Position numbers and translations under genes: made by a program. This document shows, in pieces, positions 22,012 to 46,771 of a stretch of DNA of 64,000 bases. Source of the stretch: Sphingomonadaceae bacterium (GTDB lineage Bacteria > Pseudomonadota > Alphaproteobacteria > Sphingomonadales > Sphingomonadaceae). The notes below the pieces were generated by a model, which was not told where the DNA came from, made no database searches, and saw nothing but the letters and a program-made list of their open reading frames with translations. Position 1 is the first letter of the stretch. Each line of letters opens with the position of its first letter. Location of the stretch: positions 1 to 64,000 of the forward strand of contig RFPL01000016.1 in assembly GCA_009926135.1 (NCBI GenBank), written 5' to 3'.

Positions 22012-22098
22012 GCCCAGATGGCGGAATTGGTAGACGCACCAGCTTCAGGTGCTGGCGCTCGCAAGGGCGTGGAGGTTCGAGTCCTCTTCTGGGCACCA
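22012..22098 (+). tRNA. tRNA-Leu (anticodon CAG)
   Basis: The acceptor stem GCCCAGA (22012-22018) pairs with TCTGGGC (22088-22094), followed by discriminator A and an encoded CCA (22096-22098). The anticodon stem CCAGC/GCTGG encloses loop TTCAGGT, giving anticodon CAG at 22046-22048, which reads CUG. A long variable arm (GGCGCTCGCAAGGGCGT) and a GGTTCGAGTCC T-arm identify a class II leucine tRNA. Confidence 0.97.
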
Positions 22099-22156
22099 TT
22101 TCTGCTTGCATTGCTGGACGGATTCACGCCTTTTGGGCGGAGAACAGGGGTCTTTG

Positions 22157-22831
22157 ATGCAATCGGCCAAACCGGCCTCCACTGAACTTGCGACGATCGC
22201 TGCGGCCTTTGGCTGTGGCGAGGCTTTGGCGCGGACGATCGGTGGTCTGGGGCGCGGCGGGGAGCATGGGCGGGGGCAGGTGCTCTATCCGCTGCCCGAC
22301 CGGGAGGAGACTTCGCTGCTGCTCGCCGGGATGGCGCAGGAAGCTGCCTATGGCCGCGAGGGCGGGGTGCTGGTGCTGCATCAGTTTGGACCCGGGGAAT
22401 TCTATGGCAGCCTGATCGGCCAGGGTGACGGGCGCGGCGAGACGCAGGTTGAGGCGCTGAGCGATGGCCGCGCGCTGCACTATGGCGAGGAAACCGTGAT
22501 CCGGCTGATGGAGAGCTATACCGGGGTGGCCGTGGCGATGACGCGCCAGCTGGCCCGGCGGTTGGCAGCCATGCGCCAGCGCATGGTCGAGGCGACCTTG
22601 CTGTCCGCTACCGGGCGCATCTGCGCGGAGCTGCTGCGGCTGTCGCGCCAGTCCGATGACGGCGTGATTCGCCCGCTCCCGGTCCTGGCCGAGCTGGCCC
22701 AGCGGGTGCAATCGACGCGCGAGACCGTGTCGCGCACCGTTTCGCAGCTTGAGCGGCGCGGGATCCTGAAGCGGCAGGACGGCGGGCTGGCGGTGATCGC
22801 CGCGCACCGGCTGGAGGAACTGGTCTTCTAG
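22157..22831 (+). CDS. Crp/Fnr family transcriptional regulator
   Basis: A 224-residue regulator with an N-terminal cyclic-nucleotide-binding-like beta roll (FGPGEFYGSLIG, VEALSDGRALHYGEE), a long dimerisation helix and a C-terminal winged helix. The recognition helix STRETVSRTVSQLE carries E-x-x-S-R, the FNR/FixK-type pattern for TTGAT half sites. The four-cysteine iron-sulfur motif of true FNR is absent: only C20 lies near the N-terminus. Start chosen at the ATG at 22157, since the longer frame reaches into the tRNA. The stop overlaps that of the convergent operon by four bases. Confidence 0.85.
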   Translation: MQSAKPASTELATIAAAFGCGEALARTIGGLGRGGEHGRGQVLYPLPDREETSLLLAGMAQEAAYGREGGVLVLHQFGPGEFYGSLIGQGDGRGETQVEALSDGRALHYGEETVIRLMESYTGVAVAMTRQLARRLAAMRQRMVEATLLSATGRICAELLRLSRQSDDGVIRPLPVLAELAQRVQSTRETVSRTVSQLERRGILKRQDGGLAVIAAHRLEELVF

Positions 22832-24426
22832 TTGCGCGCCAGCAGCATGTGGACCGGGCCGCCGGTGCTGTCATCGCCCAGATGGTAAAGTTCGCTGCGC
22901 ACCATCGCGGCGGGTACCGCAGCCAGCGCCACGGCCAGCGCATCGGAGGCGAGGGCGGTCCCCGGCGGTGCCATGCCCAGCAGTTCGCCGGCCCGCTCGC
23001 GCTCGGGACCATAGGCAACCAGAGCGCCGCTGGCCGGATCACCGATCACCGTGCCGATCGCCTGATGCACTCCGATCGCCGGAGCAGCGCCAGGCAAGGC
23101 GAGCAGCGCTGCAACCAGCGCCAGGGCCTGGTCGCGATCATCCAGCAGCAAGTCCCAGCGACCTGGCGCAGCGCAGATCGCTCCGGCGGGCAGGCGTGCT
23201 TCGGCGATGGTGCGGGCCACCTTGTCGATCGCCGGGGTGAGCTGGGCAGAGGATGACGGCTCGGCCGGCAGATCGATCCCGATAGCGATCTGGGTCACCA
23301 GTCTGCAGGCCGGATCGGGCGCTTCCGGCGGGAACATCGCCTCGACCGCCGCATCGCGGGCAATCCGGATTCGCTCCTGGCCATTGCCGCTGGCGGGCCA
23401 CAAGGCGGCCTGGCGCGCCGTATTGGGGCCGCCGCCGGCTTCGTCCTCGACCAGCCATTGCCAGCAGGCCGCGCCGAGCCGGCGCGCGTTCAGCACGGCT
23501 CCACCAATGGCGAGCACTCCGGCATGGGCGGTGGCGAGCGGATCGTGGACCGAGGCAGGACTGTATCCAGCCACCCGGAGCGAGATTGCCGCGCCCAGCA
23601 GCCGCTCATAGCGGGCCAGCCAATCCGCCCCGGCCGGCGCGACCGACTGCGCGGCGAAGACTTCCGGTGGGCAGGGCAGGACCACGTTCAGTTCGGCCCC
23701 GGCGGCCAGCAGCCGTTCGGCGATGATGATATCCGCGCCCGCCGCCAGCGCCCCCCAGCCAAACCCGACGCCGCAGCGCGCGATCAGTCCATCGGTTGCC
23801 GCCGCCAGGCGGGCTTCGCCAGGGCCGCTGGCAACGATCCCCATGTGGCCGGCGAAATGCAAACTGGCGGGCGGGGCAAAGCGGCTCAGCCACGGCACCT
23901 CGGCGGCTTGCGCGCGTAGGATTTCCCGCAGCTGGGCCAGAGTTATGGCACGATCTTCCCAGCCATCGGGATCGGCGGCGACTGCTGCGGCCAGCGCGCG
24001 TTCGGCGCCAGCCTGATCGTCCAGCAGCAGCAAAGCCTCGGCGCGCGTGGCGGCGAGGTAATAGGGGGTGTCGGCGGCTGGGCCGGAGGCATCCAGCAGG
24101 GCGAGAACAGCGCGTGCGCTCACCGCGGCGGCGGCCCGGTCGCCCGCCAGCAGGCGCGCCGTGGCCGCGTTGATGGCGCGGTATGGCGCCGGGGCAAGGG
24201 CGTGGGCCGCAGCATAGGCATCAGCCGCCGCTGCGAACAGGGCGGTCCGGTCGGCCCCCGAACAGGCCCGCGCGCGGTCCTTCAGCAAGCGCCCCTTGAG
24301 CGACAGTGCGGCGGGATCGTCATCGCGGCCATCCCAGCCGCCGCTGCGGAACAGCTCCCAGGCCCGCGCGCTGGCACCGGCGCGGGTCAGTGCGGCAATG
24401 GCGGCCAGGGACAGCCGGGCAGACAT
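22828..24426 (-). CDS. TPR/TRAFs-binding-like protein with SLOG-like and degenerate nucleotidyl cyclase-like domains
   Basis: A 532-residue soluble protein, the last gene of a three-gene operon. Residues about 60-175 are Ala-rich helical repeats like the TRAFs-binding (DUF4071) region. Residues about 188-345 look like a SLOG/LOG nucleotide-binding fold: HFAGHMG, then GALAAGADIIIAERLLAAGAE, VVLPCPPEVF, and a GGGPNTARQAALW segment. Residues about 375-505 resemble the second half of a class III nucleotidyl cyclase (IGVHQAIGTVIGDPASG, then a YGPE-RAGELLGMAPPG pattern), but I cannot place the metal-binding aspartates, so it is probably a sensor and not an enzyme. The domain calls are by eye. Confidence 0.6.
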   Translation of the reverse strand: MSARLSLAAIAALTRAGASARAWELFRSGGWDGRDDDPAALSLKGRLLKDRARACSGADRTALFAAAADAYAAAHALAPAPYRAINAATARLLAGDRAAAAVSARAVLALLDASGPAADTPYYLAATRAEALLLLDDQAGAERALAAAVAADPDGWEDRAITLAQLREILRAQAAEVPWLSRFAPPASLHFAGHMGIVASGPGEARLAAATDGLIARCGVGFGWGALAAGADIIIAERLLAAGAELNVVLPCPPEVFAAQSVAPAGADWLARYERLLGAAISLRVAGYSPASVHDPLATAHAGVLAIGGAVLNARRLGAACWQWLVEDEAGGGPNTARQAALWPASGNGQERIRIARDAAVEAMFPPEAPDPACRLVTQIAIGIDLPAEPSSSAQLTPAIDKVARTIAEARLPAGAICAAPGRWDLLLDDRDQALALVAALLALPGAAPAIGVHQAIGTVIGDPASGALVAYGPERERAGELLGMAPPGTALASDALAVALAAVPAAMVRSELYHLGDDSTGGPVHMLLARN

Positions 24427-25145
24427 CAGGGATTGTTACCCATGCCGTTGCCGGTATCCGGATCGATCACGATCGGCAGCGGCTGCTGGCCCGGCAGGGT
24501 CACATGATAGTTCAGCGAATATTTCGCCGCCTTGCCGGGAGCGTCGGCGGGGCGGGGCGTGAAGGCGCTGCCATCGAAGATCGTGTTGTAATTCTCGATC
24601 CGGATCAGCTTGCCTTTCAGCGGCGCATCGAGCCGGTCATCGCCGACCCGCGCGACGAAGAAGCTGTCATTACCGGCGGCCGGAGTGCCGTTGGCCAGCG
24701 CCGCGCCGAACGAGATCAGCAGCGTGTCATCCAGCGTCACGTCGGCGCTGTCGTAATAGACAAAGATTTCGTGCTGGCAGTTGAAGCCGAGGTCAACGAA
24801 GTCGTCGCGGTCAAAGGTGCCATCCGGGCGCTGGTATAGCCGGGCTTCGGCATCGGGCTGGCCCGGACGCAGGTCTGCCAGCTTCTTGCGGTTGCCGGTG
24901 CCGTTCGGGCTGACCTTCTTGAGAATCCGCAGCGCCTGGGCCAGCCGGGCTTCCGCAGTGTTCTGTCCGGGATCGTCGATCGCGAAGCTGGCGTGGTTGG
25001 CGCTGATCCGCCAGGCGCGCGGCGAATCGATGCGGATCACGGTGATATAGGCCGGGGCAAAGGGAATGTTGCCGGGCCGCCGGGCGAGGTCGTGCGGATC
25101 GATCCCCGCTGTAGTGTCATTCGTCCAGCCACTGGTATTGCTCAC
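24426..25145 (-). CDS. Protein of unknown function, middle gene of TIR operon
   Basis: A 239-residue soluble protein with no signal peptide or membrane helix. It starts with GTG inside the stop of the TIR gene (GTGA overlap), and its stop overlaps the next start (TGATG), so it is translationally linked on both sides. The second half is predicted beta-rich, including VDLGFNCQHEIFVYYDSADV and a C-terminal LPIVIDPDTGNGMGNNP tail. I do not recognise the family. Its fixed position between a TIR protein and a putative nucleotide sensor suggests a linked role, but the sequence alone gives no function. Confidence 0.6.
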   Translation of the reverse strand: MSNTSGWTNDTTAGIDPHDLARRPGNIPFAPAYITVIRIDSPRAWRISANHASFAIDDPGQNTAEARLAQALRILKKVSPNGTGNRKKLADLRPGQPDAEARLYQRPDGTFDRDDFVDLGFNCQHEIFVYYDSADVTLDDTLLISFGAALANGTPAAGNDSFFVARVGDDRLDAPLKGKLIRIENYNTIFDGSAFTPRPADAPGKAAKYSLNYHVTLPGQQPLPIVIDPDTGNGMGNNP

Positions 25146-26839
25146 TTGCGCGTTCCTTGTGTGATGCGGGTCATCATGGTGTCGAAGCGGGTCATTTCCT
25201 CTGCCGGATATGCGCGCTGTAGCCTGGTGTAATAGCCGCGGGCTTCGGCTTCGAGGGCGGCGGCCTGGGGGTGACGACCAGCCTGTGCGGCCTTGGCTGC
25301 CAACCAGACGAGGCGGAACTGCTGAACCGTCAGCGAGAGATCGTCCGGCCGCAGCGCGGCGAGCCGGGCATAATCGGCCAGCGCGAGCCGGACCCGGGCA
25401 AGGCCCGGTTCGAACCGGCCCGCAGCGAATTCGAGTTCGGCCGCGCCGATTTCGGGCCAGAGCCGGCGTTCGCGCAGCTGGCGGTTTTCAGGCTCGGCCT
25501 TGAGCAGGGCGGCAATGATTGCTGCTTCCTCGCGCCGCAGCGCCAGCGCGCGGTCAAACTGGCGGTCCTTGCCGACCACGTCAGCCTGCCAGCCGAGGCG
25601 ATTGGCGAGATCGAGCTGGTTCTGCCGCGTCGCTGCCGGCAATCGTGCCGCCTGCCGCATCAGCCCGGTGGCCTTTTCGCACCAGGGCAGGGCCTGGCGG
25701 GCATCCCTGGACTGGCGCATGGTCAGTTCGCACAGGTTGCCATTGGCATAGCCCAGTTCCATCAGCGCGCGCCGGCTGCCCGGCTCACGCAGGGCAAGTG
25801 CCTCGGCCTGGGCCAGGTAGGCGCGCCAGTGGCGCTGTGTCGTCACAAGGTCGGACTGCTGCCAGGCCGCGAAACCGGTCCAGAACTCACTCTGGGCATG
25901 GGCAAAGATGGCTTCGGGATCACTGGGGCGCTGGGCCAGCACGGCAGCCGTGGTGCGCGCGGCTTCTTCGAACTTGGTCTCGGCCTCGGCAAAACGGCCG
26001 CGCTGGGCCTCGTCCTCGCCCATCGCCTGAAGCAACCGGGCGCGCCGGGTCAGGCTGCCGGCTGGCAAGGCAGAGAGATCCTGCTGCGAATAGTGCGCCA
26101 TGGCCCGCGCGTTGACCTTGTCCATGACGCTTAGGCCTGCCGCGCCTTTCAGCTCGCTCCGCAGATCGGTCAGCATGAATTCGACCATCCCCTCGGCGCT
26201 GGCGCGCTGCCGTTCCGCTTCGGTGCGGGCGCGGATCGCCACCACCAGCAGAGCCGCCAGCACTATACTGAGCAGCAGCGCCGCCGCCGTGACGGCCATC
26301 ACGCGGCGCTGGCGGGCCTGGGCATCGCGCTGGACCAGCCGGTCGAGCGGTTGCCCGGTCAGTCCCGCCACCATCTTGAGCAGGCCCAGCCGCTTGCCAT
26401 CGGCGCCTTTGCGGAAATCGGCCGCCAGCGGCTCAACCGCGCGGCCCTGATACTCGACCAGCGCTTGCGGAAAGGCCTCGGCCGGCTCGCCCGCGATCAA
26501 GGCGGCCAGAACCGGCCGGTCAGGGTGGAGCGAGCGAAACAGCGCGATCTCCTGATCGACCCAGCGGCTGGCCCGGGCCTGGGGGCTGGCCACCACGATC
26601 AGCGCGGCGGACTGCGCCAGCGCCGCGCGCACCTGATTGGTCAGATCGGGCGCGGCCGCCAGTTCCGCCCGGTCGATGAACACCGGGGCCAACCGCTGGT
26701 CCGGCCCGGTGGTGCCGGGGGGCAGCCGGTACCGCTCGATCCGGCGGTGCAGCCAGGAGGCGAAGGGGGCGTCGGCGTGGCTGTAACTGATGAAGGCGCG
26801 GTACCGGGGCGCCGCAACCGGCGCTGCATGCTGGCTCAT
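25142..26839 (-). CDS. TIR domain protein with membrane anchor and helical repeats
   Basis: A 565-residue protein. Residues 12-130 form a TIR domain: YRAFISYSHADAPFASWLHR, FIDRAELAAAPDLTNQVRAAL, and SRWVDQEIALF, where E97 aligns with the catalytic glutamate of NAD-cleaving TIR enzymes such as SARM1 (WVHKEI). One membrane helix spans about 180-202, and the rest is TPR-like helical repeats ending at residue 565. The TIR domain precedes the helix and should be cytoplasmic. A GGGGAG ribosome site precedes the ATG. It leads a three-gene operon with overlapping cistrons. NADase activity is plausible but untested. Confidence 0.8.
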   Translation of the reverse strand: MSQHAAPVAAPRYRAFISYSHADAPFASWLHRRIERYRLPPGTTGPDQRLAPVFIDRAELAAAPDLTNQVRAALAQSAALIVVASPQARASRWVDQEIALFRSLHPDRPVLAALIAGEPAEAFPQALVEYQGRAVEPLAADFRKGADGKRLGLLKMVAGLTGQPLDRLVQRDAQARQRRVMAVTAAALLLSIVLAALLVVAIRARTEAERQRASAEGMVEFMLTDLRSELKGAAGLSVMDKVNARAMAHYSQQDLSALPAGSLTRRARLLQAMGEDEAQRGRFAEAETKFEEAARTTAAVLAQRPSDPEAIFAHAQSEFWTGFAAWQQSDLVTTQRHWRAYLAQAEALALREPGSRRALMELGYANGNLCELTMRQSRDARQALPWCEKATGLMRQAARLPAATRQNQLDLANRLGWQADVVGKDRQFDRALALRREEAAIIAALLKAEPENRQLRERRLWPEIGAAELEFAAGRFEPGLARVRLALADYARLAALRPDDLSLTVQQFRLVWLAAKAAQAGRHPQAAALEAEARGYYTRLQRAYPAEEMTRFDTMMTRITQGTRK

Positions 26840-27069: not shown

Positions 27070-30000
27070 ATGAGGGGTAAGCTGACCCTATTGGCTGGCG
27101 TCTGCGCCAGTGCAATTGCAATTCCTGCCTATGCGCAGGGTACCAATGCGGCTGATGACGAAAACGTGATCATCGTCACCGCGCAGCGTTCCAACGAACG
27201 CCTGCAGGACGTGCCAATCGCGGTTTCGGCGTTCAACGCCGAAGCGCTGGAAAAGCAGCAGATCAAGAATACGTCGGACCTGCAGCTTACCCTGCCGAAC
27301 GTTACCTTCACCAAGGGCAACTTCACCGGATCGAGCTTCACCATCCGCGGGATCGGTGACCTTTGCGTCGGCGTGACTTGCGACAGTGCCACCGCGATCC
27401 ACATGAACGACGCGCCGCTCTATGCGACCCGTTTGTTCGAAGGTGAATTCTATGACCTGGCGCAGATCGAAGTGCTGCGCGGTCCGCAGGGTACCCTGTT
27501 CGGCCGCAACGCGACCTCGGGCGTGGTCAACTTCCGCTCGGCTCGTCCGGACCTGTCCGCTTCGTCGGGCAACTTCGAAGCCGAATACGGCAACTACAAC
27601 AGCTTCAAGCTGAAGGGCATGGTCAACGTGCCCGTGGGTGACACGGTCGGTATCCGCCTGGCCGGGTTCTACCTGAACCGCGAAGGCTACACGACCAACC
27701 TGTTCGACAATTCGAAGATCGATGACCGCGATATGTGGGGCGCCCGTGCCTCGATCCGGTTCGAGCCCAGCTCGTCGACCACGATCGACCTGATGGCGCA
27801 GTACTTCCACGAAAAAGACAACCGCATGCGGATCCAGAAGCAGCTGTGCCAGCGCGACCCGACGGGCGTGATGGGCTGCTTGAACGGAAGCCGCGACTAT
27901 TCGACCACAAATGCGAACTCGTCGTTCGTTGGCGTGCTCACTTCGCGCGAATTCCTCGCCGCGAACGGGATTCCGGCGGCCTTCGGTCTGGGCAGCCTCT
28001 ACGGTCCCGATCCCTATGCCACCGTCACCAACCCGGCGGACCCGCGCGTGGTCAACACCGACTACACCCCGCAGTATTTCGCGGAAGAGTGGATTGTTCA
28101 GGGCTCGATCCAGCAGGATCTGGGCGGCGGCCTGAATGCGAAGCTCAGCGGCAACTGGGAACAGACCAAGGTCGACTCCTCGCAGGACTACAACAACTCG
28201 GTCCAGAACCGCGCCGGCTTCGCCACGGGTCTGAACACGCTTGCTGCGGCTGCGGCCGGCCTGGTCCCGGGCCTGCCCGCGTCGTACTTCGCACCGATCG
28301 CTTCGGCCCTGATCCCGAACGGCGCGAACGGCGTGCTCTGCACCTCGCTGGCGGAACCGAGCGGCATGGGTGCCTATGGCGCAAACCGCCAGCGGCTCTG
28401 CTCGCAGACTCCGCAGGACTTTGACCGTTCGAACCAGGATACCGAAAACTGGTCGGCGGAATTGATCCTGTCGTCCGACTGGGACGGGATGTTCAACTTC
28501 CTGCTCGGCGGCATCTACGGCAAGGCGTCGATGAGCGAGAACAGCTACTATGTTAACTCGTTCGGCATTGACTACCTGACCGGTCTGCTTGGTACCTTCA
28601 ACGCCCTTGGCCGGGCTGGCCTGGCCGCGATCCCCGGTGCCACGCCGCCTGCGCCGGGCTTCCTGGGTACGCCGACCTATCGCAACAACAGCGACCAGCT
28701 CGACGTGAAGACCTACGGGATCTTCGGTGAAGCCTACTTCAAGTTCAACGATCAGCTGAAGCTGACCGTGGGCCTGCGGTACAACAACGACGACAAGACG
28801 GTTAAGGCCCGCACCACGCTGGCCAACTTCCTGACGCCGTTTGGCGGAACCGATGTGTTCAACTCGCCGTACGTCTATGGCTACGCGGTTACCGGCGCGC
28901 CGGTGGCTTCGCGGCTCCAGCCGTTCGACGCCGATCCGGCCACGGCCTGCTCGATCACCAGCACCACCGCTAGCGGTGTGCTGACTGCCGCCAACGTCTC
29001 GGGCTGCGAACTCTTCCAGGTTCGCAACGTGAAGTTCAGCGAGTGGACCGGTCGTGCGGTGCTGGATTACCAGATCACCCCGGACAACCTGGTCTATGCC
29101 TCGTTCTCGCGCGGCTACAAGTCGGGTGGTGTCAACCCGCCGCTGTCGCCGGTCTTCGCCGTGCCTGAAGGCTTCGGTCCGGAAACGGTCACCGCCTTCG
29201 AAGTGGGTTCGAAGAACACCTTCGGCAACATCCAGCTGAACGTGACCGGCTTCTACTACAAGTACAACGACCTCCAGCTGTCGCGCATCGTTGCCCGTAC
29301 CTCGGTCAACGACAACGTCAGCGCCAATGTCTGGGGTCTTGAAGCCGAAGCGATCTTCCGTCCAACCCGCGCGCTGGCGATCAACATGAACGCCAGCTAC
29401 CTGAACACCAAGGTTTCGGAAGACAAGCTGCTGTCGAACCCGCGTGACTTCGGGGCCGGCCGTGCGGACGCGGTGATCATCAAGGACATCACCAACGGTG
29501 CGAACTGCGCCGTGGCTTCGAACTCGGGCAGCGCCACTGGCGTCAACGGGTTCGTCAACCAGGTGAACACCCTGATCAACGCTGGCGCGGTCACCGGCAA
29601 CGCCGGTGCCGGTCTCCAGCCGACCACCGCCTTCCCTTCGGGCAGCGGCCTGGCTTCGACCGGGGCCTTCAGCATCTGCGCCGCGCTCAATGCGCTCGCG
29701 CCGTCTGTTGGAGCCAGCTTCGGCGGCGTCACCGTCTACTCGTCGGGTATCCCGGTGAACATCAAGGGCAACAAGCTGCCTGGCGCTCCGGACTACAAGT
29801 TCTCGGCCGGCGTGCAGTATGACATCCCGGTTGGCGACATGTCGGTGACCCCGCGTGCGGACTTCATCTACACCGGCAAGTCGTTCGGCAACATCTTCAA
29901 CGGTTCGATCAACGAGATCCCGAGCTACACCCAGGTGAACGCTCAGATCCAGCTCGATGGTGCCGACAAGAAGTGGTTTGCCCGCGTCTGGGTGCAGAAC

Positions 30001-30120
30001 CTGTTCGACAAGGACGCGATCACCGGTCTCTACGTGACCGACCAGTCCTCGGGCAACTACACCAACATCTTCACGCTTGAACCGCGTCGCTTCGGCCTCA
30101 CCGCCGGCATCCGCTTCTAA
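27070..30120 (+). CDS. TonB-dependent outer membrane receptor
   Basis: A 1016-residue outer membrane receptor. A signal peptide runs to about residue 22 (IPAYAQ), followed by a TonB-box-like ENVIIVTAQRSNERLQDVPIAV stretch and a plug domain. The plug includes RGPQGTLFGRNATSGVVN, a hallmark of the large sphingomonad receptor family. A 22-strand-type barrel with many aromatic-girdle motifs ends in GIRF. Such receptors import siderophores, plant-derived aromatics or other large nutrients, and the ligand cannot be read from sequence. Loop-located cysteines (CVGVTC, LCQRDPTGVMGC) may form disulfides. A strong terminator follows. Confidence 0.92.
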   Translation: MRGKLTLLAGVCASAIAIPAYAQGTNAADDENVIIVTAQRSNERLQDVPIAVSAFNAEALEKQQIKNTSDLQLTLPNVTFTKGNFTGSSFTIRGIGDLCVGVTCDSATAIHMNDAPLYATRLFEGEFYDLAQIEVLRGPQGTLFGRNATSGVVNFRSARPDLSASSGNFEAEYGNYNSFKLKGMVNVPVGDTVGIRLAGFYLNREGYTTNLFDNSKIDDRDMWGARASIRFEPSSSTTIDLMAQYFHEKDNRMRIQKQLCQRDPTGVMGCLNGSRDYSTTNANSSFVGVLTSREFLAANGIPAAFGLGSLYGPDPYATVTNPADPRVVNTDYTPQYFAEEWIVQGSIQQDLGGGLNAKLSGNWEQTKVDSSQDYNNSVQNRAGFATGLNTLAAAAAGLVPGLPASYFAPIASALIPNGANGVLCTSLAEPSGMGAYGANRQRLCSQTPQDFDRSNQDTENWSAELILSSDWDGMFNFLLGGIYGKASMSENSYYVNSFGIDYLTGLLGTFNALGRAGLAAIPGATPPAPGFLGTPTYRNNSDQLDVKTYGIFGEAYFKFNDQLKLTVGLRYNNDDKTVKARTTLANFLTPFGGTDVFNSPYVYGYAVTGAPVASRLQPFDADPATACSITSTTASGVLTAANVSGCELFQVRNVKFSEWTGRAVLDYQITPDNLVYASFSRGYKSGGVNPPLSPVFAVPEGFGPETVTAFEVGSKNTFGNIQLNVTGFYYKYNDLQLSRIVARTSVNDNVSANVWGLEAEAIFRPTRALAINMNASYLNTKVSEDKLLSNPRDFGAGRADAVIIKDITNGANCAVASNSGSATGVNGFVNQVNTLINAGAVTGNAGAGLQPTTAFPSGSGLASTGAFSICAALNALAPSVGASFGGVTVYSSGIPVNIKGNKLPGAPDYKFSAGVQYDIPVGDMSVTPRADFIYTGKSFGNIFNGSINEIPSYTQVNAQIQLDGADKKWFARVWVQNLFDKDAITGLYVTDQSSGNYTNIFTLEPRRFGLTAGIRF

Positions 30121-30376: not shown

Positions 30377-30979
30377 TCAGGCCACAAGCGAAGCTTCGAT
30401 GGCGATCCGGATCGCTTCCGAGGTGTGCTGGGCCCCCATCTTGGTCAGCATGTTGGCGCGGTGGATTTCGACGGTGCGCGGGCTGATCTCCAGCTGCTCG
30501 CCGATCCGGCGGTTGGATAGCCCGACCGCAACCCCGGCCAGAACTTCGCGCTCGCGCCGGGTCAGGCGCTGGACCCGGCTTCGCGCCCGGGCCTCGCGCA
30601 GCTTGAGGCTGCCAAGTGCTGCTCCGGTCGATTCCGTGCCGATCAGCGCGCCGATGACTTGCGCGGCATCGCACGGCCAGCTGAGGTAATCGACTGCCCC
30701 GGCCAGGACGGCCTTCACGATCTGGTCGGTGCCTGGCTCCTCCGCAAAAGCGATCAGCGGCAGCCAGCGGCCGTTCTCGGCCATCAAACTGACCAGTTCG
30801 GTCACGGCATCCTCGGCATCCTCGACCATGATCGCCTCGGCGCGCGGCCAGGCGTGCGCCAGTTCGTCAATCGTCTCGAACGGTTCGACATGGATGCCGC
30901 TGGCGGAAAAGGTATGCGTCATTGCCGCGCGGCGGCGCGAATTGCAGTCAACGACGGCAATTGTTCGGCGTCTGTCCAT
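30377..30979 (-). CDS. FixJ/LuxR-type regulator with atypical receiver domain
   Basis: A 200-residue protein with a receiver-like N-terminal domain and a C-terminal LuxR helix-turn-helix (LTRREREVLAGVAVGLSNRRIGEQL, residues 139-163, then SPRTVEIHRANM). The receiver keeps Asp11 of the acidic pocket, but the phosphoacceptor region is AIMVEDAED around residues 50-57, and the usual Lys-Pro near the end of the domain is Trp-Pro (W101-P102). It may therefore work without normal phosphorylation. It sits downstream of, and in the same direction as, the flagellar cluster, so a role in motility control is possible but unproven. A 141-base gap with a GCCCCG/CGGGGC stem separates it from fliS. Confidence 0.75.
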   Translation of the reverse strand: MDRRRTIAVVDCNSRRRAAMTHTFSASGIHVEPFETIDELAHAWPRAEAIMVEDAEDAVTELVSLMAENGRWLPLIAFAEEPGTDQIVKAVLAGAVDYLSWPCDAAQVIGALIGTESTGAALGSLKLREARARSRVQRLTRREREVLAGVAVGLSNRRIGEQLEISPRTVEIHRANMLTKMGAQHTSEAIRIAIEASLVA

Positions 30980-31120
30980 CTGTGTGCCCCCTTAGTGGTA
31001 TGTGCCTAGGGATATTGCCCCGAGCCGGGGCCGCCAGCGCGGCGAACTGCCCCGAAATCGGAGGCGGATAGCTGGGGAAAGTCCCTAGTCCGGACGCCCG
31101 GTTCCGCAGAAAAACGGACA

Positions 31121-31519
31121 TCATGATTGATCCAGAATGGAGCGATCGGCGGCGGCACCGACGGCCGCAGCCACCTCCTCCACGTCTCTTTTCGCCGCAG
31201 ACAGTCGCTGCGGGACAAAGTTCGGCACGCTGTCCAGCACGGCCTGGCGCAGTCCGGCGTAGAACAGTTGCAGCGCCGGCGCGGCTGGTGCGCCCGGGTC
31301 AATCCCGATCTGCAAGGCGGTCAGCGCGGCGAGGGCCCGGGTCAGTCCGGCGCTGCGACGCTGGTTGTCGCCCAGCTGGTCGGCCCGGATCGCACTGCCC
31401 AGCGCCAGCGCCAGCTCGTCATAGCACAGCGCCACCAGCTGATCGGGGCGGGCCGCGGCAACGCGCGCATCGAATTCGATCCGGCGATAGGCATCATGGG
31501 GGTTGCGCAAGGCCAGCAT
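31121..31519 (-). CDS. fliS: Flagellar export chaperone FliS
   Basis: A 132-residue helical protein whose N-terminal AYRRIEFDARVAAARPDQLVALCYDEL matches FliS, the cytoplasmic chaperone that holds flagellin subunits before export. Its ATG overlaps the fliD stop (TGATG), the usual order of the capping-protein operon. Length is normal. Confidence 0.85.
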   Translation of the reverse strand: MLALRNPHDAYRRIEFDARVAAARPDQLVALCYDELALALGSAIRADQLGDNQRRSAGLTRALAALTALQIGIDPGAPAAPALQLFYAGLRQAVLDSVPNFVPQRLSAAKRDVEEVAAAVGAAADRSILDQS

Positions 31520-32940
31520 CAGTTACGCCCCGCGTTCCAGGCATCGATCTGGCCCTGGAGGAATGACAGGGTCGAGCGCGAAGTGCCGACCCGGCTGTCG
31601 GCACTGGCAAAGCGCTTGTTGAGCTGCGCGCGCAGTGCTTCCTGTGCATCGGCCAGGGCAGAGCGTTCGGCAGTCAGATCGGCCTGCTTCGCGGTAAAGC
31701 GCGCCAGCGATCCCCCCAGCGAACCGGGATTGCGGGTCGTGCTGGTGTTGCGGGCCAGCCGGTCGATTGCCGCGAACACTCCGTGGATCCCGGCGGTGAA
31801 CATGGCGGTAACGCCATCGGGCGAGGCCTTGATCGTGGCCGTGAGGCGCGCGGGATCAAGCCGGAAGGTTCCATCGCGGTTGGTCGCCAGGCCCAGTTCG
31901 CCCAGGGTCCGCGGCTCGCCAGTGGCGGCGTTCGGCATGATGCTGGTGCTGGCCAGCTGGGCGAAGGCGCTGCGCAGTGCGCGGGCGCCGCCGTCGCGCG
32001 CCAGATCGCCGTCCTGCGGATTGGTCGCCGCATTAAGCGTCGTCATCAGCTCGTTCAGGGCCGAGGTCAGGTCCTGCATGAAGGTGCTGACCGCGCTGCC
32101 CGGATCGCTGAAGCGGATCGTGGTCGGGCTGCCGGCATTGGTTCCGGCCAGCCGCAGCGATAGGCCGGGCACCGCGTTCTCGATCATGTTCGACTTGCTG
32201 GTCATGGCGACGCCATCAAGCTTGAAGGCCGCATCGCCCGCGGCGCTCACCAGCCGCACCGGGTCGGGCGTGCCATTCCAGGCCAGCCCGGCCAGGCCCG
32301 GATTGGCGGGATCCTCGCTCGCTTCGAGGACAAAGGCGTTCGCCGCGCCCTCGCTGCCTTTCAGCACCAGTTGCGCCCCGCTCGCACCATTGGCGACATA
32401 GGCTGTAACCCCTGCGCCAGCGGCATTGATCGCGGCGGCGGCATCACTGAGCGTCGCGCCGGCCGCCAAGGTGATGGTGGGGGCAGGGCGGGACGGATCA
32501 GCGGTAAAGGTGCCGGCCGAGAAACTGCCGAAACGCAACGTCAGTGTCCCCGCGCCGACCGGGGTGATGGCGCTGGCGATGGCCGGGCGGACCAGGGTCT
32601 GCGCGGTGGCCAGGGCCGTCACTTCCAGGCTGTAGCTGCCGCTGCCCGCGGCCACGCCGCGACTGACGCTGGCGACAGCGCCATTGGCGATGGCCGGCTG
32701 GCTGGAAAGGTCGCCGGTCCGCACCCGGTCGCCGATCGACGCAGCCAACTGCATCAGCTGGTTCTTGAGCGTGGAGGCCGCCGAAACCTGCCGATCAAGC
32801 AGCTCGCTGCGGCTGTCGATCCGGGACAGCCGTCCGGCGAATTGCGCCTCGGCCAGGTTGTTGGCCAGCGCTGTCATGTCGATCCCGCTGCCCCCGCCCA
32901 GGGCCGTGACGATCGAACTGGTGGCGCTGGTAGTGACCAT
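31519..32940 (-). CDS. fliD: Flagellar filament capping protein FliD
   Basis: A protein of about 473 residues that caps the growing filament and helps flagellin polymerise. The N-terminal ALGGGSGIDMTALANNLAEAQFAGRLSRIDSR and the C-terminal helical ends (TLSFLQGQIDAW) are FliD hallmarks, with a beta-rich middle. I chose the ATG at 32940 over a TTG seven codons upstream (32961); neither has a strong ribosome site. The stop is shared with the fliS start. Confidence 0.88.
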   Translation of the reverse strand: MVTTSATSSIVTALGGGSGIDMTALANNLAEAQFAGRLSRIDSRSELLDRQVSAASTLKNQLMQLAASIGDRVRTGDLSSQPAIANGAVASVSRGVAAGSGSYSLEVTALATAQTLVRPAIASAITPVGAGTLTLRFGSFSAGTFTADPSRPAPTITLAAGATLSDAAAAINAAGAGVTAYVANGASGAQLVLKGSEGAANAFVLEASEDPANPGLAGLAWNGTPDPVRLVSAAGDAAFKLDGVAMTSKSNMIENAVPGLSLRLAGTNAGSPTTIRFSDPGSAVSTFMQDLTSALNELMTTLNAATNPQDGDLARDGGARALRSAFAQLASTSIMPNAATGEPRTLGELGLATNRDGTFRLDPARLTATIKASPDGVTAMFTAGIHGVFAAIDRLARNTSTTRNPGSLGGSLARFTAKQADLTAERSALADAQEALRAQLNKRFASADSRVGTSRSTLSFLQGQIDAWNAGRN

Positions 32941-32970
32941 GCCTCGGAGAACGTCAGCCAAGGCTGCTTT

Positions 32971-34113
32971 TTAAGTCCGCGCGGCGGGATCCAGCCGGCC
33001 GGCGGCATCAAAGCGCAGCGCGATCGGCACTTCGATTGCCGGAGGCTGCGGCTGTTCTCCGCGCTTGAGCGACAGGACAAAAGCCAGCACCCCGGCAACG
33101 GCGGCATAAAGCTCTTCGCGGATCACCTGATTCTCGCGCGTGGTGAAATAGACTGAGCGGGCGAGCGCCGGGTATTCCAGCGTCGGCACCTGCAGTTCGG
33201 CGGCCAGTTCGCGCATCGCCAGCGCCTTTTCGCCGCGCCCCTTGGCCAGCACGATCGGCGCAGATGCCTTGGCCGGGTCATAGGCCATGGCGACCGAAAA
33301 GTGGCTCGGGTTGGTCAGGACGAACTGCGCGTCACGCATCGCCTTGGCAACGCCGCCCATGGCGAGCTGGCGCTGCTTGTTGCGGATCGCCATCTTCTTT
33401 TCGGGCGATCCTTCCGCTTCCTTGTGCTCGTCGCGCATTTCCTGCGCGGTCATCTTGAGCCGCTGGTTGCGGCGCAGCCACTGCACCGGCCAGTCGATCA
33501 GCGCGACGAGGACCAGCCCTGCGGCCAGGGCCAGGATCAGGCTAGTGATTGCCTCCCAGGCAAGCGTAAGCTGCTGGCCGATGGCTGCCCCGCGCCCCAG
33601 GGCGAACAGGCGCACGAGCCAGTCCTGTCCCCAATACCAGGCGATCGTGCCCAGCAGGGCAAGCTTGAGCAGGCCCTTGCCGGCCTCGATCCAGCCGGCC
33701 GCCCCGAACATCCGCTTGAGGCCGGCCATGAGATCGAGCCTGCTGGCCTTGGGCAGGGCGTTGGCCCCGACCCAGCGCCCGTCCCCGCCAGCCAGCGATC
33801 CGGCCAGCGTCAGCAGCAGTACCAGTCCGGCCAGCGTCAGCACCGGCGGCATGACCGCCAGCACGGCGGCAAGCAGGGCCTGGCCCGGGGCAAAGTCGTC
33901 AAGCGCACGCCGATCCCAGATGAAGCCGGCGCGCAGGGTGCCTTCAAGCGAGCCGAGCAGCCAGGGGCCGGCAAATGACAGCCAGGCCGCGCCCGTCAGC
34001 ACGGCGATTGCCGTTGCCAGCTCGCGGCTGCGCAGAACATCGCCCTTTTGCGCGGCGTCTGTCTTGCGCTTCGGGGTCGGATCGAAGCTCTTCTCGCCGC
34101 CCTGTTCGCTCAT
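32971..34113 (-). CDS. flhB: Flagellar export switch protein FlhB
   Basis: A 380-residue inner membrane component of the flagellar type III export gate that switches substrate class after self-cleavage. It opens with GEKSFDPTPKRKTDAAQKGDVLRS, has four hydrophobic segments and a cytoplasmic domain. The cleavage motif reads N268-P269-S270-H271, not the usual NPTH. Asn-Pro is kept, so cleavage should still be possible. The start overlaps the fliR stop by four bases. Confidence 0.92.
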   Translation of the reverse strand: MSEQGGEKSFDPTPKRKTDAAQKGDVLRSRELATAIAVLTGAAWLSFAGPWLLGSLEGTLRAGFIWDRRALDDFAPGQALLAAVLAVMPPVLTLAGLVLLLTLAGSLAGGDGRWVGANALPKASRLDLMAGLKRMFGAAGWIEAGKGLLKLALLGTIAWYWGQDWLVRLFALGRGAAIGQQLTLAWEAITSLILALAAGLVLVALIDWPVQWLRRNQRLKMTAQEMRDEHKEAEGSPEKKMAIRNKQRQLAMGGVAKAMRDAQFVLTNPSHFSVAMAYDPAKASAPIVLAKGRGEKALAMRELAAELQVPTLEYPALARSVYFTTRENQVIREELYAAVAGVLAFVLSLKRGEQPQPPAIEVPIALRFDAAGRLDPAART

Positions 34114-34892
34114 GGCTGCAGCAGGCTCCGGGCCTGTTCGAGCCCCTGCGCGGAAAGATCGCCGAACTGTTCGACCAGCAGCGGCACGGCCATGATCAGC
34201 GCGGCCAACCCGGCCAGCACGCCCAGCGGCAGGCCAAGCGCAAAGAGATTGAGCGCCGGGGCCGAGCGGCTGATTACCCCGGTCAACACCTGGACCAGCA
34301 ACAGGACCAGCGTGACCGGCAGGGCGATGGCGAGCGCGGCGACGAACATGTCACTGCCGAAGCCGGCAATCACGGCGAGCCGCTCCGCCCCCAGCCACGT
34401 CGCGCCCTGCGGAAAGGCCGTGTAGCTTTCGATCACCAGGGCAATGAATTGCAGATGTCCGCCCAGGCCCAGGAAAACCAGCGTCAGCAGCACAGTGAAG
34501 TATTGCCCCAGCGCCGGTGATTGCACGCCGCTGACCGGATCGACTGCGGTCGCCAGGCTGAGGCCCATGGCACCGCCAATCTGTTCGGCGGCAAGGACCG
34601 GCGCGGCGAAGCAAAGTTGCAGCACAAAGCCCAGCGCCAGACCGACCAGCACCTCGCCCGCGATCATCAGCAGGCCCTGGGCCGACAGTAGCGCCGCCGG
34701 AACCTGCACCGGCACCCAGGCGCAGACCAGCACGGCCACTGCCGCAGTGATCGCGACGCGCAATTGCACCGGCACGGTCGCCGCGCCAAAGAACGGCGCG
34801 GCCAGCAGCGCGGCCCCGATCCGGGTCATTACGAAGACCAGCTTCCACAGCTCGACCTCAAGCGCGCCGAAGCCGAAAGTCATGCCGATCAT
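34110..34892 (-). CDS. fliR: Flagellar export gate protein FliR
   Basis: A 260-residue inner membrane protein of the FliPQR export gate, with several hydrophobic helices and the family's GEVLVGLALGFVLQLCFAA and SRSAPALNLFALGLPL segments. I chose the ATG at 34892, which overlaps the fliQ stop (ATGA). The frame upstream to 35117 lies inside fliQ and is not coding. Confidence 0.9.
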   Translation of the reverse strand: MIGMTFGFGALEVELWKLVFVMTRIGAALLAAPFFGAATVPVQLRVAITAAVAVLVCAWVPVQVPAALLSAQGLLMIAGEVLVGLALGFVLQLCFAAPVLAAEQIGGAMGLSLATAVDPVSGVQSPALGQYFTVLLTLVFLGLGGHLQFIALVIESYTAFPQGATWLGAERLAVIAGFGSDMFVAALAIALPVTLVLLLVQVLTGVISRSAPALNLFALGLPLGVLAGLAALIMAVPLLVEQFGDLSAQGLEQARSLLQP

Positions 34893-35161
34893 CGCGGTCC
34901 ACCGGCGATCGTGGCGAAGATTTCCTGCGTGAAATCGCTGACCAGGCCGATCATCGAGGCACCGAATACGACGAGGACCAAGGCTGTCACCGCCAGCTTC
35001 GGCACAAAGGTCAACGTCTGTTCGTTGACCGAAGTCGCCGCCTGAACGATCCCGATCACGATCCCGACGGCAAGGCTGGCCAGCAGGATGGGCGCCGCCA
35101 CCAAGGCGGTCACCCACAGCATCCGGTCGGCCAGCGAGAGCAGGGCGGCGGTATCGTCCAT
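34889..35161 (-). CDS. fliQ: Flagellar export gate protein FliQ
   Basis: A 90-residue protein with two membrane helices and the typical core ASLAVGIVIGIVQAATSVNEQTLTFVPK. FliQ wraps the FliP/FliR pore. It starts four bases after the fliP stop and overlaps fliR by four bases. Confidence 0.93.
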   Translation of the reverse strand: MDDTAALLSLADRMLWVTALVAAPILLASLAVGIVIGIVQAATSVNEQTLTFVPKLAVTALVLVVFGASMIGLVSDFTQEIFATIAGGPR

Positions 35162-35165
35162 GATG

Positions 35166-35936
35166 CTATCCGAAGCTCGCCGCGAGGCTGCCCATCAGCA
35201 GCGCCCAGCCATCGACCAGCACGAACAGCAGCAGTTTGAACGGCAGGCTGACGATGGTCGGGCTCATCATCATCATCCCCAGGCTCATCAGCACCGATGA
35301 GACCACGAGGTCGATCACCAGGAAGGGCAGGAACAGCATGAAGCCGATCTGGAACGCGGTCTTCAGCTCGCTGGTGACGAAAGCGGGTAGCAGGATCGAA
35401 AAGGGCACGTCCTCGCCCCGCGCGAACTTGGGCGCCTTGGCCATGTCAGCGAACATCGCGAGGTCGCTCTTGCGGGTCTGGCGCAGCATGAAGGCATGGA
35501 ATTCCTTGCCGCCACTGGCGATCGCCTGCTCGGCGTTGATCGTGCCGGCGGCATAGGGCGCGATGGCGGTCTGATTCACCCGCTCGAGCGTGGGGGCCAT
35601 GATGAACAGTGACAGGAACAGGGCCAGCCCGATCAGCACCTGGTTGGGCGGGCTCTGCTGCAGGCCCAGCGCCTGGCGCAGGATCGACAGGACAACCAGG
35701 ATCCGGGTGAAGCTGGTCATCATCAACAGCAGCCCCGGCAGGATCGTGAGCAGCCCCATCAGCAGCATGATCTGGAGCGAGAGCGAAAGGCCCGAACCCT
35801 GCGCGCCGCCAATCGCTCCAAATGCGCGGTCGAGCGCGCCCGGCACGGCGGCCTGGCCGGCCACCTGGGCGTGAGCGATCGTGGGCAGCAGCAGGGTTGT
35901 CAGAAGCAGCGAGTGTAGAGCGAGCAGCTTCCTCAT
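35166..35936 (-). CDS. fliP: Flagellar export gate protein FliP
   Basis: A 256-residue export gate component. It has an N-terminal signal-like helix (about residues 4-23), then the highly conserved [24 protein letters not shown] and [20 protein letters not shown] segments and further helices. FliP forms the core of the export pore. Start chosen at the ATG at 35936, which overlaps the fliO stop. Confidence 0.95.
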
Positions 35937-36202
35937 CGACGAACCTCCCGCGCCGGAGCCTCGGCCAGCCGGGTCAGCCCCGCGCGCGAGGCGGAAACCA
36001 GGATCTCGCGCCCGTGGAATTCGATCACCGCCAGCTTGAGCGTGGGCGAAAGCATGGTGGTTTCGATCACCCGCACGGCCTTTCCGCCCTGGGGATCCGG
36101 AGCGAAACGGGCTTGAGCCTTGGCGGCGAGCTTGAGCGAGCCCCAGGCCAGACCGGCGATCAGCGGCAGCAGCAGGACCAGCTTGAGGATATACCAGCCC
36201 AT
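35933..36202 (-). CDS. fliO: Flagellar biosynthesis protein FliO
   Basis: An 89-residue protein with one N-terminal membrane helix (about 6-28) and a short cytoplasmic domain, [27 protein letters not shown], typical of FliO. It assists FliP complex assembly and is poorly conserved in sequence, so the call leans on its place between fliN and fliP. Confidence 0.8.
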
Positions 36203-36477
36203 CAGGCCTCTCCCTCAACGGCAGCGCCATTGCCGCCCGCCATCTCGACGATCCGCAGGCCGAAGCGGTTGCCCTCGGCCACGATCTCGCCCCGCGCGAT
36301 CAGCTTCCCGTTGACGAGGACGTCGAGCAGGTCGTCGGTCAGCCGGTCGAGCATGACGACCGATTCCTCGCCCAAGGCGAGAACGTCCTTCAACTTCATG
36401 TCAGTCTTGCCGAGTTCAACCGAGAGGCGGACGTCGACTTCCCTGAGCAGGTCGAAGCCGCGGGTATGAATGGTCAT
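36202..36477 (-). CDS. fliN: Flagellar motor switch protein FliN
   Basis: A 91-residue SpoA-domain protein of the cytoplasmic C-ring. [32 protein letters not shown] and the terminal IVEMAG follow the FliN pattern. It has almost no N-terminal extension. The stop overlaps the fliO start by one base. Confidence 0.9.
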
Positions 36478-36492
36478 GGGAGAGGGTTCCTG

Positions 36493-37356: not shown

Positions 37357-37363
37357 CGCGGCC

Positions 37364-37951
37364 TCACTGCACCAGGAAGGACTTGAAATAGACCGCGTCG
37401 ATCCCGCCGAAGCCTTCGTTGGCGGCCAGCACCTTGTTGATCGCCTCGGCCAGCCGCTTTTGCAGCCGCTGCTTGCCTTCGGGGGTATAGACGTCTTCCT
37501 CGGGCGTGTCGGCCAGGACCACCAGGATCTCGCTGCGGATCGCCAGTTCGTGCTTCTTGAGCCACATCAGCACGCGCCCGTCGCGGCGGGTCGAACAGGC
37601 CAGGTTGATCTGCACCAGCGCGGTCGAGTTCTTCAGGTTGGACGTAAAGTCCTCGGTGAAATTGTAATAGCTGGTGCGATACTCGCTGCCGCCTTCGCCT
37701 TCGACATCCGCGCCGCCCTCGCCCTCCTTGGCTTCGGTCTTGGGGGCATAGGGGTCCTCCTCGCCCTTGCGGACCAGCTTGGGTTCGTTGCTCTCCTTCT
37801 TTGCCGGTTCGTGGCTGCCGCCGATCATGCCCGACTGGACCAGGGCAAAAGTACCGCCGCCGCCCGCGCCGATCAGCACCACGGCGCCGATCAGCTTGAT
37901 CAGCAGGCCCTTGCCCTTCTTTTTCGGCGGGGTCTCGGTCTTGTCACTCAT
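37364..37951 (-). CDS. fliL: Flagellar basal body protein FliL
   Basis: A 195-residue inner membrane protein with a Lys-rich cytoplasmic start, one helix (about 16-38), an acidic Glu/Lys-rich linker to about residue 88, and a periplasmic FliL domain ending in GIDAVYFKSFLVQ. FliL supports stator function and motor torque. It lies seven bases upstream of fliM. Confidence 0.88.
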   Translation of the reverse strand: MSDKTETPPKKKGKGLLIKLIGAVVLIGAGGGGTFALVQSGMIGGSHEPAKKESNEPKLVRKGEEDPYAPKTEAKEGEGGADVEGEGGSEYRTSYYNFTEDFTSNLKNSTALVQINLACSTRRDGRVLMWLKKHELAIRSEILVVLADTPEEDVYTPEGKQRLQKRLAEAINKVLAANEGFGGIDAVYFKSFLVQ

Positions 37952-37981
37952 TGTCTGGTCCTGTGTTCACGGTGCTGGAGT

Positions 37982-39091: not shown

Positions 39092-39121
39092 CGGTCCGGA
39101 TCCTCTCGCGGGTTCGCAGAC

Positions 39122-44026: not shown

Positions 44027-44029
44027 CTA

Positions 44030-44386: not shown

Positions 44387-45630
<1,244 letters not shown>

Positions 45631-46731: not shown

Positions 46732-46771
46732 CTTGCCCCGCGCAAATGGGAGGTTTAAGGGCCGCCGCATC

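What the first reader, a model, noticed from the sequence alone, without database searches (positions are those of the whole stretch)
22828..26839. Three-gene TIR / unknown / SLOG-cyclase-like operon: possible nucleotide-signalling immune or stress system
The first gene (25142-26839) has a TIR domain with the catalytic Glu retained (E97, SRWVDQEIALF), a membrane helix and helical repeats. The third (22828-24426) carries helical repeats, a SLOG-like nucleotide-binding region (HFAGHMG; GALAAGADIIIAERL; GGGPNTARQAALW) and a degenerate cyclase-like domain (IGVHQAIGTVIGDPASG). The middle gene (24426-25145) has no recognised family. All three overlap by one or four bases. In the Thoeris defence system a TIR enzyme makes a cyclic ADP-ribose signal read by a SLOG domain. 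Here the same pairing occurs, but the SLOG protein has no SIR2 domain and the TIR protein is membrane-bound, so the architecture appears different from the standard one. Function in defence is inference.
Basis: partly seen in the sequence, partly recalled or inferred. Interest (0 to 1): 0.8.

Follow-up and report, generated by a model that had tools for sequence, protein, structure and literature searches.

The report
TIR–SLOG signalling cassette with four genes
This is a conserved bacterial gene cassette in which a membrane-bound TIR enzyme probably makes a small signal from NAD that a SLOG sensor protein reads, with a DNA-binding regulator beside it as the likely output; whether it fights phages or senses another stress is unknown.

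Summary
The three overlapping genes are real. Gene 1 is TIR, membrane helix, TPR-like tail; the catalytic Glu is kept in 56 of 56 aligned proteins. Gene 3 is TPR-S, SLOG and a dead class III cyclase domain: model pLDDT 94, matching YpsA (Z 16.9) and Rv1900c (Z 17.4). The four proteins diverge together. The middle protein evolves fastest; 26 of 48 aligned proteins match Pfam 'pNTSase1' at E up to 1, the window's does not. Weak structural and profile evidence links it instead to the DP-EP family, which (from memory) self-cleaves at Asp-Pro. Thoeris membership is not met: the SLOG protein has no effector domain. Best reading: TIR makes an NAD-derived signal, SLOG binds it, output is transcriptional through the Crp-like protein. 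Defence is untested; plasmid and phage records gave no match, and some genomes keep SLOG without this TIR.

The parts
25142..26839 (-). Gene 1: TIR, membrane helix, C-terminal helical TPR-like region (565 aa)
   Evidence: ORF; PF13676 and PF08937; alignment of 56 proteins; TPR-like tail is judged by eye (no Pfam match)
26486..26794 (-). TIR domain (residues 16-118) with catalytic Glu97
   Evidence: one search match range; Glu in 56 of 56
26234..26290 (-). Predicted membrane helix (about residues 184-202)
   Evidence: Kyte-Doolittle 19-residue mean 2.83; stretch at this place at 1.6 or more in 54 of 56
24426..25145 (-). Gene 2: fast-evolving middle protein, beta-rich in a low-confidence model; some relatives match PF20301 pNTSase1; DP-EP-like by weak evidence
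24447..24464 (-). C-terminal motif Asp228-Pro229-x-x-x-Asn233, candidate self-cleavage site (inference)
   Evidence: DP in 47 of 48 aligned proteins, DPxxxN in 35 of 48; DP in 78 of 84 extracted proteins, duplicates included
22828..24426 (-). Gene 3: TPR-S, SLOG, pseudo-cyclase (532 aa)
23878..24426 (-). TPR-S / TPR scaffold (residues 1-183)
   Evidence: PF20308 at residues 10-90; all-helical in the model
23359..23874 (-). SLOG domain (residues 185-356)
   Evidence: YpsA 2nx2 Z 16.9, rmsd 2.6, 153 aligned
22834..23313 (-). Degenerate class III nucleotidyl cyclase domain (residues 372-531)
   Evidence: Rv1900c 1ybu Z 17.4; Ma1120 E 2.3e-7 with the A2 profile; catalytic residues absent
22049..22831 (+). 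Gene 4: convergent Crp/Fnr-like regulator; true start probably the ATG at 22157 (inference)
   Evidence: PF13545 E 2.2e-10; NCBIfam CRP E 2.8e-9, below that model's cut-off; such a gene within two genes downstream of gene 3 in 57 of 75 testable loci

Best explanation
A four-gene TIR-to-SLOG signalling cassette, chromosomal and inherited as a unit. Step 1 (inferred from family and conserved Glu): the membrane-anchored TIR protein is switched on through its C-terminal TPR-like region and/or the variable middle protein, and converts NAD+ into an ADP-ribose-type signal. Step 2 (fold shown, ligand inferred): the TPR-S/SLOG/pseudo-cyclase protein binds that signal in its YpsA-like SLOG domain; the cyclase domain no longer makes a cyclic nucleotide and acts at most as a structural or allosteric part. 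Step 3 (inferred from gene linkage and co-divergence): output is changed activity of the neighbouring Crp/Fnr-like regulator, so the response is transcriptional rather than direct killing. The middle protein is probably the recognition part, since it diverges fastest. The biological trigger, phage or envelope/metabolic stress, is open.
For: TIR Glu97 in 56 of 56. SLOG fold by YpsA Z 16.9; PMC9503650 (passages seen) says that the YpsA-like SLOG clade includes members that sense cADPr. TIR upstream on the same strand within three genes in 52 of 67 loci of the set and 41 of 58 of the set; TIR within three genes on either side in 54 of 67 and 50 of 58 (the two sets share several genomes and are not added). 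Crp-like gene within two genes downstream in 57 of 75 and 30 of 58 (the TIR and Crp profiles were built from members of the second set). Pairwise identities across 37 complete loci correlate: TIR-SLOG r 0.85, SLOG-Crp 0.89, TIR-Crp 0.84, MID-SLOG 0.73, each with 0 of 999 permutations reaching the observed value; shared species history explains part of this. The window's flanking genes recur in few of the 140 other loci (at most 6 for any one gene, against 91-130 for Crp, TIR and SLOG). Other SLOG proteins of this family lie beside different membrane TIR proteins, with an SH3-like region in the one scanned (L077), so the TIR-SLOG pairing is wider than this operon. Mean identity 0.20 for the middle protein against 0.36-0.42 for the other three. 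Recognition helix of the Crp-like protein: R187, E188, S191, R192 each in 59 of 59.
Against: No activity was measured. Among loci with both flanks held, 13 of the 50 with TIR upstream have no Crp-like gene nearby (16 of 41 in the second set), and 4 of 65 and 12 of 58 have neither. Of eight genomes searched with the TIR protein (E limit 1e-8), four keep the SLOG protein without a match (G150, G264, G718, G719), although in G264 a different TIR-domain gene lies four genes upstream; G315 keeps SLOG and Crp beside a TIR remnant. So the SLOG protein may work without this TIR. No Crp-type operator with up to two mismatches was found upstream of the window's TIR or Crp gene. The side of the membrane is unsettled: with one helix and TIR inside, the TPR-like tail is periplasmic, while 81 of 84 middle proteins show no export signal; 23 of 56 TIR proteins have a second, weaker hydrophobic stretch before the helix, so a hairpin is not excluded. 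No complex between the parts was tested.
Confidence: 0.45

Rival explanations
1. A true anti-phage abortive-infection system: TIR makes the signal, the SLOG protein is the effector or activates NAD depletion or killing, the middle protein recognises a phage component, and the Crp-like protein only controls expression.
For: TIR plus SLOG pairing as in Thoeris; patchy presence (protein 3 in 76 of 298 family genomes and 35 of 96 genera); fast-diverging middle protein.
Against: No effector domain found on the SLOG protein; no match for protein 3 in 72,556 plasmid records (E 1e-10) or 50,697 phage records (E 1e-6); PADLOC gives TIR-type matches, plus one weak HamA match (E 0.008) of a middle-protein relative, L166; Crp co-divergence with the SLOG protein is as strong as that of TIR.
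Confidence: 0.3
2. An envelope or nutrient stress sensor: the region after the TIR membrane helix senses a periplasmic condition, and the SLOG and Crp proteins adjust transcription; not immunity.
For: Membrane helix at the same place in 54 of 56 TIR proteins; three of 84 middle proteins carry lipoprotein-type signals; another SLOG partner is a TIR protein with a membrane helix and an SH3-like region (L077); no match on plasmids or phages; a transcriptional regulator is linked.
Against: 222 of 298 family genomes gave no match to protein 3; fast divergence of the middle protein is unusual for a housekeeping stress sensor; topology is unsettled.
Confidence: 0.25
3. The middle protein is an enzyme that makes a nucleotide (as the Pfam name pNTSase1 predicts) and the SLOG protein reads that product or both products.
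For: 26 of 48 aligned proteins match PF20301 'predicted novel nucleotide synthetase' at E up to 1, best 1.1e-66; of 20 scanned singly, 6 match and 4 pass the curated cut-off.
Against: Across 48 aligned proteins only Asp-Pro is near-invariant, too little for a conserved active site; the VIA ranking points to DP-EP and PixA beta-sandwich proteins (low-confidence model).
Confidence: 0.1

Closest known systems
Thoeris (ThsB TIR + ThsA SIR2-SLOG)
   Same: TIR protein with catalytic Glu encoded next to a SLOG-domain protein
   Different: SLOG protein has TPR-S and a dead cyclase domain instead of SIR2 or another effector; TIR has a membrane helix and a TPR-like tail; extra middle gene and a Crp-like regulator
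TPR-S (PF20308) and pNTSase1 (PF20301) proteins; from memory, named in Burroughs and Aravind, J Bacteriol 2020 (not held), which predicts TPR-S to sense NAD-derived signals
   Same: Protein 3 is a TPR-S member above the cut-off; some relatives of the middle protein are pNTSase1 members
   Different: The convergent Crp-like gene, the pseudo-cyclase tail and the DP-EP link come from the analysis here; I could not read that paper, so any of these may be in it
SLOG superfamily, YpsA
   Same: Fold, Z 16.9
   Different: Embedded between TPR-S and a cyclase-like domain
DP-EP family (PF08985), SO1698; from memory reported to self-cleave between Asp116 and Pro117
   Same: C-terminal DPxxxN motif; top four rows of the VIA second look; local profile score above all 150 controls
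   Different: 3-4% identity in the fold alignments; PF08985 not among the Pfam families listed for the 48 proteins; longer protein
ASK (MAP3K5) N-terminal region
   Same: 22 of 34 aligned protein 3 relatives match MAP3K_TRAF_bd at E 0.01
   Different: The window protein itself only at E 0.034, below cut-off; MAP3K5 matches the profile at E 0.31, not significant

Membership tests
Thoeris | TIR protein of ThsB type | tested here: met
   PF08937 ThsB_TIR 30.7 bits, cut-off 21.2; PADLOC ThsB models only weak, best E 0.0071
Thoeris | SLOG sensor domain in the partner | tested here: met
   YpsA Z 16.9 at residues 185-356
Thoeris | Effector domain (SIR2, membrane, Macro, protease) on the SLOG protein | tested here: not met
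   Pfam: TPR-S, plus a sub-cut-off MAP3K_TRAF_bd match; the model is TPR-like helices, SLOG and cyclase-like domain from end to end
Thoeris | cADPR-type signal made by TIR | not testable with these tools
   needs enzymology
TPR-S PF20308 | Curated HMM match above cut-off | tested here: met
   31.3 bits, cut-off 27.6; 34 of 34 aligned proteins match at E 0.01
SLOG superfamily | Rossmann-like SLOG fold | tested here: met
   YpsA Z 16.9, rmsd 2.6, 153 aligned
Class III nucleotidyl cyclase | Fold | tested here: met
   Rv1900c Z 17.4, 152 aligned
Class III nucleotidyl cyclase | Two metal Asp, transition-state Asn and Arg (roles from memory) | tested here: not met
   window G, G, E, E at the aligned columns; five longer relatives keep Asp, Asp and Arg in 5 of 5 but Asn in 0 of 5
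pNTSase1 PF20301 | HMM match of the window protein | tested here: not met
   0 families
pNTSase1 PF20301 | Homology through relatives | tested here: inconclusive
   26 of 48 aligned proteins match at E up to 1; window-type profile (3 sequences) against a broad middle-protein profile: hhalign probability 58.8%, E 9.4e-5 over 33 C-terminal columns
DP-EP PF08985 | HMM match | tested here: not met
   PF08985 not among the 11 families listed for the 48 aligned proteins at E up to 1
DP-EP PF08985 | Beta-sandwich fold of SO1698 | tested here: inconclusive
   top four rows, Z 4.8-5.3, but the model has pLDDT 55.5
DP-EP PF08985 | C-terminal DPxxxN | tested here: met
   window DPDTGN; 35 of 48 aligned proteins
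DP-EP PF08985 | Self-cleavage at Asp-Pro | not testable with these tools
   needs protein
Crp/Fnr regulators | Crp-type HTH | tested here: met
   PF13545 40.8 bits, cut-off 27
Crp/Fnr regulators | Conserved cNMP-phosphate Arg (position from memory) | tested here: not met
   Arg in 12 of 59 at that column, window Glu; the cNMP_binding HMM is below its cut-off (17.4 of 27.5 bits)

The most novel reading that the evidence does not exclude
The middle protein is a self-cleaving Asp-Pro protein of the DP-EP type that works as the variable trigger of a bacterial membrane TIR receptor: cleavage or release of its C-terminal peptide, or its recognition of an invader, turns TIR on; TIR makes an NAD-derived signal; the TPR-S/SLOG pseudo-cyclase reads it and hands it to a dedicated Crp-like transcription factor. 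This would be a TIR pathway ending in gene regulation rather than cell death, and would mean that the Pfam label 'nucleotide synthetase' is wrong.
Probability: 0.2. Interest if true: 0.8.

Novelty: new variant of a known kind. Interest (0 to 1): 0.58.

Why it matters
TIR-to-SLOG signalling is known mainly from systems that kill the infected cell (general knowledge). A chromosomal cassette that pairs a membrane TIR protein with an effector-less SLOG reader and a co-diverging Crp-like regulator suggests a TIR route to transcription in bacteria. It gives a concrete test for the NAD-sensing prediction attached to TPR-S, a domain type with similarity to the animal ASK kinase region, and shows a cyclase decaying into a pseudo-enzyme within one family. 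The possible DP-EP link gives the unexplained middle family a simple biochemical test (self-cleavage at Asp-Pro).

Tried and rejected
Cyclase as the output enzyme: rejected for this copy, since all four catalytic positions checked are lost. Phage- or plasmid-borne island: no match for protein 3 or, in plasmids, the middle protein. Flagellar link: a flagellar cluster lies next to the operon, but its genes recur in few other loci, so not taken as part of the system. PixA as the relative of the middle protein: profile comparison not significant (E 0.47; only 3 PixA sequences), and the fold row is weaker (Z 4.3). DP-EP link: the local profile score is 22.2 against a maximum of 18.3 in 150 controls (149 column shuffles and one reversal), and the global score 10.1 is reached by 1 of 150. 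Limits of that test: column shuffling is a lenient control; it used 25 middle proteins picked from the 48, without the window's; hhalign's own probability is only 6.3%; the window-type profile (probability 0.1) and the 48-member alignment (1.6%) do not find the link; an unrelated control, A2, gave 0.05%. The DP-EP set was picked by requiring DPxxxN: 32 of 35 loci tried passed; of the 3 left out, two end DPQIIC and DPQVIC and for one only another ORF was read, so DPxxxN within that set is by selection. Foldseek found no confident match for the middle protein (best E 0.11). Crp-type palindrome CGTGA-N6-TCACG: perfect in 15 of 89 Crp upstreams and 5 of 54 TIR upstreams against 47 of 1463 control genes, but with up to two mismatches 29 of 89 and 11 of 54 against 348 of 1463, and absent upstream in the window; left as a lead. 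PF08985 in 59 family genomes: no match, but the control did not ring either, so this says nothing on absence; in the phylum sample 5 of 299 matched.

Literature: TPR-S with TIR and SLOG, or with Thoeris: no paper; TPR-S alone or a title phrase: 91 papers, the 20 listed unrelated; pNTSase: none; SO1698 or aspartic peptidase, DP-EP/PixA and DUF1888: listings only, nothing seen on SO1698. The J Bacteriol 2020 and J Biol Chem 2012 papers are recalled, not read.
Full report
OBSERVATION. The window is part of contig C8 of a 3.4 Mb genome in 93 contigs. The closest named relative of protein 3 comes from a Novosphingobium MAG (80% identity), so the host is probably in or near that genus (inference).

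GENE 1. Pfam gives TIR_2 (E 9e-11) and ThsB_TIR (E 4.2e-7), both above cut-off. In an alignment of 56 TIR proteins (window plus 55 from the loci), Glu97 is kept in 56 of 56. A hydrophobic stretch at the place of the window's helix reaches the 1.6 threshold in 54 of 56; in 23 of 56 a second, weaker stretch lies before it, so one helix or a hairpin are both possible in some relatives. A conserved stretch follows the helix (AEGMVEFMLTDLR in the window).

GENE 3. The 532-residue protein was modelled with an alignment of 68 sequences: pLDDT 94.2, pTM 0.93. Residues 1-183 are helical repeats; TPR-S (PF20308) is above cut-off in the window protein and matches 34 of 34 aligned proteins at E 0.01. Residues 185-356 align with YpsA (Z 16.9, rmsd 2.6, 153 aligned). 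Residues 372-531 align with mycobacterial cyclase domains at Z 16-17. In the five longer relatives of alignment A1 both metal Asp and the Arg are kept and the Asn is replaced. In the other 29, window included, the two Asp are seen in 7 and 4 and the Arg in 6, on a loosely aligned region; the window has none. So the cyclase domain is a relic here.

NEIGHBOURHOOD. Protein 3 has a match at E 1e-10 in 76 of 298 genomes of the family and 35 of 96 genera. The middle protein, which is hard to detect because it diverges fast, matched in 2 of 61 relatives. Gene 3 was called in 77 of these 80 (not in L100, L134, L169). Where at least 3 kb upstream is held, TIR lies upstream on the same strand within three genes in 52 of 67. 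Where at least 1.2 kb downstream is held, a Crp/Fnr-like gene lies within two genes in 57 of 75, convergent in 54. With both flanks held: both partners 37 of 65, TIR only 13, Crp only 11, neither 4. In the second set (60 loci called, chosen plus G004, distant members included) TIR upstream is 41 of 58, Crp 30 of 58, both 25, TIR only 16, Crp only 5, neither 12. Some genomes occur in both sets, so they are not added. A simple ORF caller and profiles built from members of the second set were used, so the counts are approximate.

CO-INHERITANCE. For 37 loci with all four genes, pairwise identities correlate: SLOG-Crp 0.89, TIR-SLOG 0.85, TIR-Crp 0.84, TIR-MID 0.80, MID-SLOG 0.73, MID-Crp 0.68; for the four pairs tested by permutation 0 of 999 reached the observed value. 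Middle ORFs of L167 and L168 were dropped beforehand as spurious. Shared species history explains part of the correlation. The window's flanking genes recur in at most 6 other loci each. In same-genus genome G004 the cassette and its flanks are collinear with the window. In 21 other genomes of the genus, the flanking epimerase was found with no match to the cassette's genes in the 2.7-4.1 kb read around it.

GENE 2. The window protein matches no Pfam family. Of the 48 aligned middle proteins (48 of 53 at hand; near-identical and spurious ones left out), 26 match PF20301 pNTSase1 at E up to 1; of 20 scanned singly 6 match and 4 pass the cut-off. It is the most variable of the four (mean identity 0.20 against 0.36-0.42). 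The one near-invariant feature is Asp-Pro near the C-terminus: 47 of 48 aligned and 78 of 84 extracted proteins including duplicates; 35 of 48 have DPxxxN. The model is poor (pLDDT 55.5) and Foldseek finds nothing. In the VIA second look the four top rows are SO1698, titled an aspartic peptidase, with mutants D37A, D116A, P117A and Q118A, at Z 4.8-5.3, followed by PixA at Z 4.3. Such Z values can arise by chance. Further support: DP-EP sequences (PF08985) share the C-terminal DPxxxN, and the profile comparison exceeds 150 of 150 controls locally and 149 of 150 globally, the global path pairing the two DP motifs. Against it: hhalign's own probability is 6.3%, and the window-type and whole-family profiles do not find it. 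I treat this as a lead, not as membership. Self-cleavage of SO1698 is recalled from a 2012 J Biol Chem paper that is not held.

GENE 4. The Crp-like protein keeps its recognition helix (R187, E188, S191 and R192 each in 59 of 59) but not the Arg that in E. coli CRP holds the cAMP phosphate (position from memory; Arg in 12 of 59). A perfect CRP-type palindrome is commoner upstream of these genes in relatives (15 of 89 against 47 of 1463 controls), less clearly so when mismatches are allowed, and is not seen upstream in the window.

MECHANISM. Shown: sequence, folds, conservation, linkage. Inferred: TIR activity, ligand, Crp output. The simplest model is TIR signal, SLOG sensing, Crp-like transcriptional output. 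Defence is possible but untested. Four of eight genomes searched (G150, G264, G718, G719) keep the SLOG protein without a match to this TIR at E 1e-8, G264 having a different TIR-domain gene four genes upstream, and G315 has a TIR remnant beside SLOG: the SLOG protein can outlive this TIR.

LITERATURE. PMC9503650 and PMC7159879: passages seen; 'TPR-S' does not occur in the second. No listed paper names this cassette under the terms tried (listings only). TPR-S and pNTSase1 already exist as Pfam families, so the parts were predicted before; the reports behind them could not be read here.

Noticed in passing
window 30377-46680: A flagellar gene cluster (flagellin at 45817-46680; names by eye) borders the operon beyond a TonB receptor (27070-30120, by eye). 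In same-genus genome G010 (L228) the epimerase lies directly beside a homologue of the window gene at 46733, as if the whole block from the cassette to flagellin were absent there.
   Followed up: partly
L034 / L240 (G315:C6:106854-107081): A remnant of the TIR gene (residues 171-246, 71% identical) sits just before an intact SLOG gene and Crp gene: apparent deletion of most of TIR and of the middle gene.
   Followed up: partly
L074:8468-9304, L162:5285-6097, L165:7018-7845: Three middle proteins begin with a lipoprotein-type signal (one also Tat-like, by eye); the other 81 of 84 scanned do not. Unexplained for the site of action.
   Followed up: partly
L075, L077, L078, L079: SLOG proteins of this family paired with different membrane TIR proteins; an SH3-like region was matched in the one scanned (L077), the others judged by eye.
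   Followed up: no
L035:7210-7677 and L037:7374-7763: In loci without TIR directly upstream, a small secreted protein (UrcA-like, by eye) precedes the SLOG gene.
   Followed up: no
window 26288-26303: Perfect CGTGA-N6-TCACG palindrome inside the TIR coding region, at the start of the membrane helix.
   Followed up: no
L047, L063, L081, L084, L091, L149: Middle proteins that lack the C-terminal Asp-Pro; five of the six have H(D/G)GIHP near the end instead; L063 and L149 show the same C-terminus.
   Followed up: no
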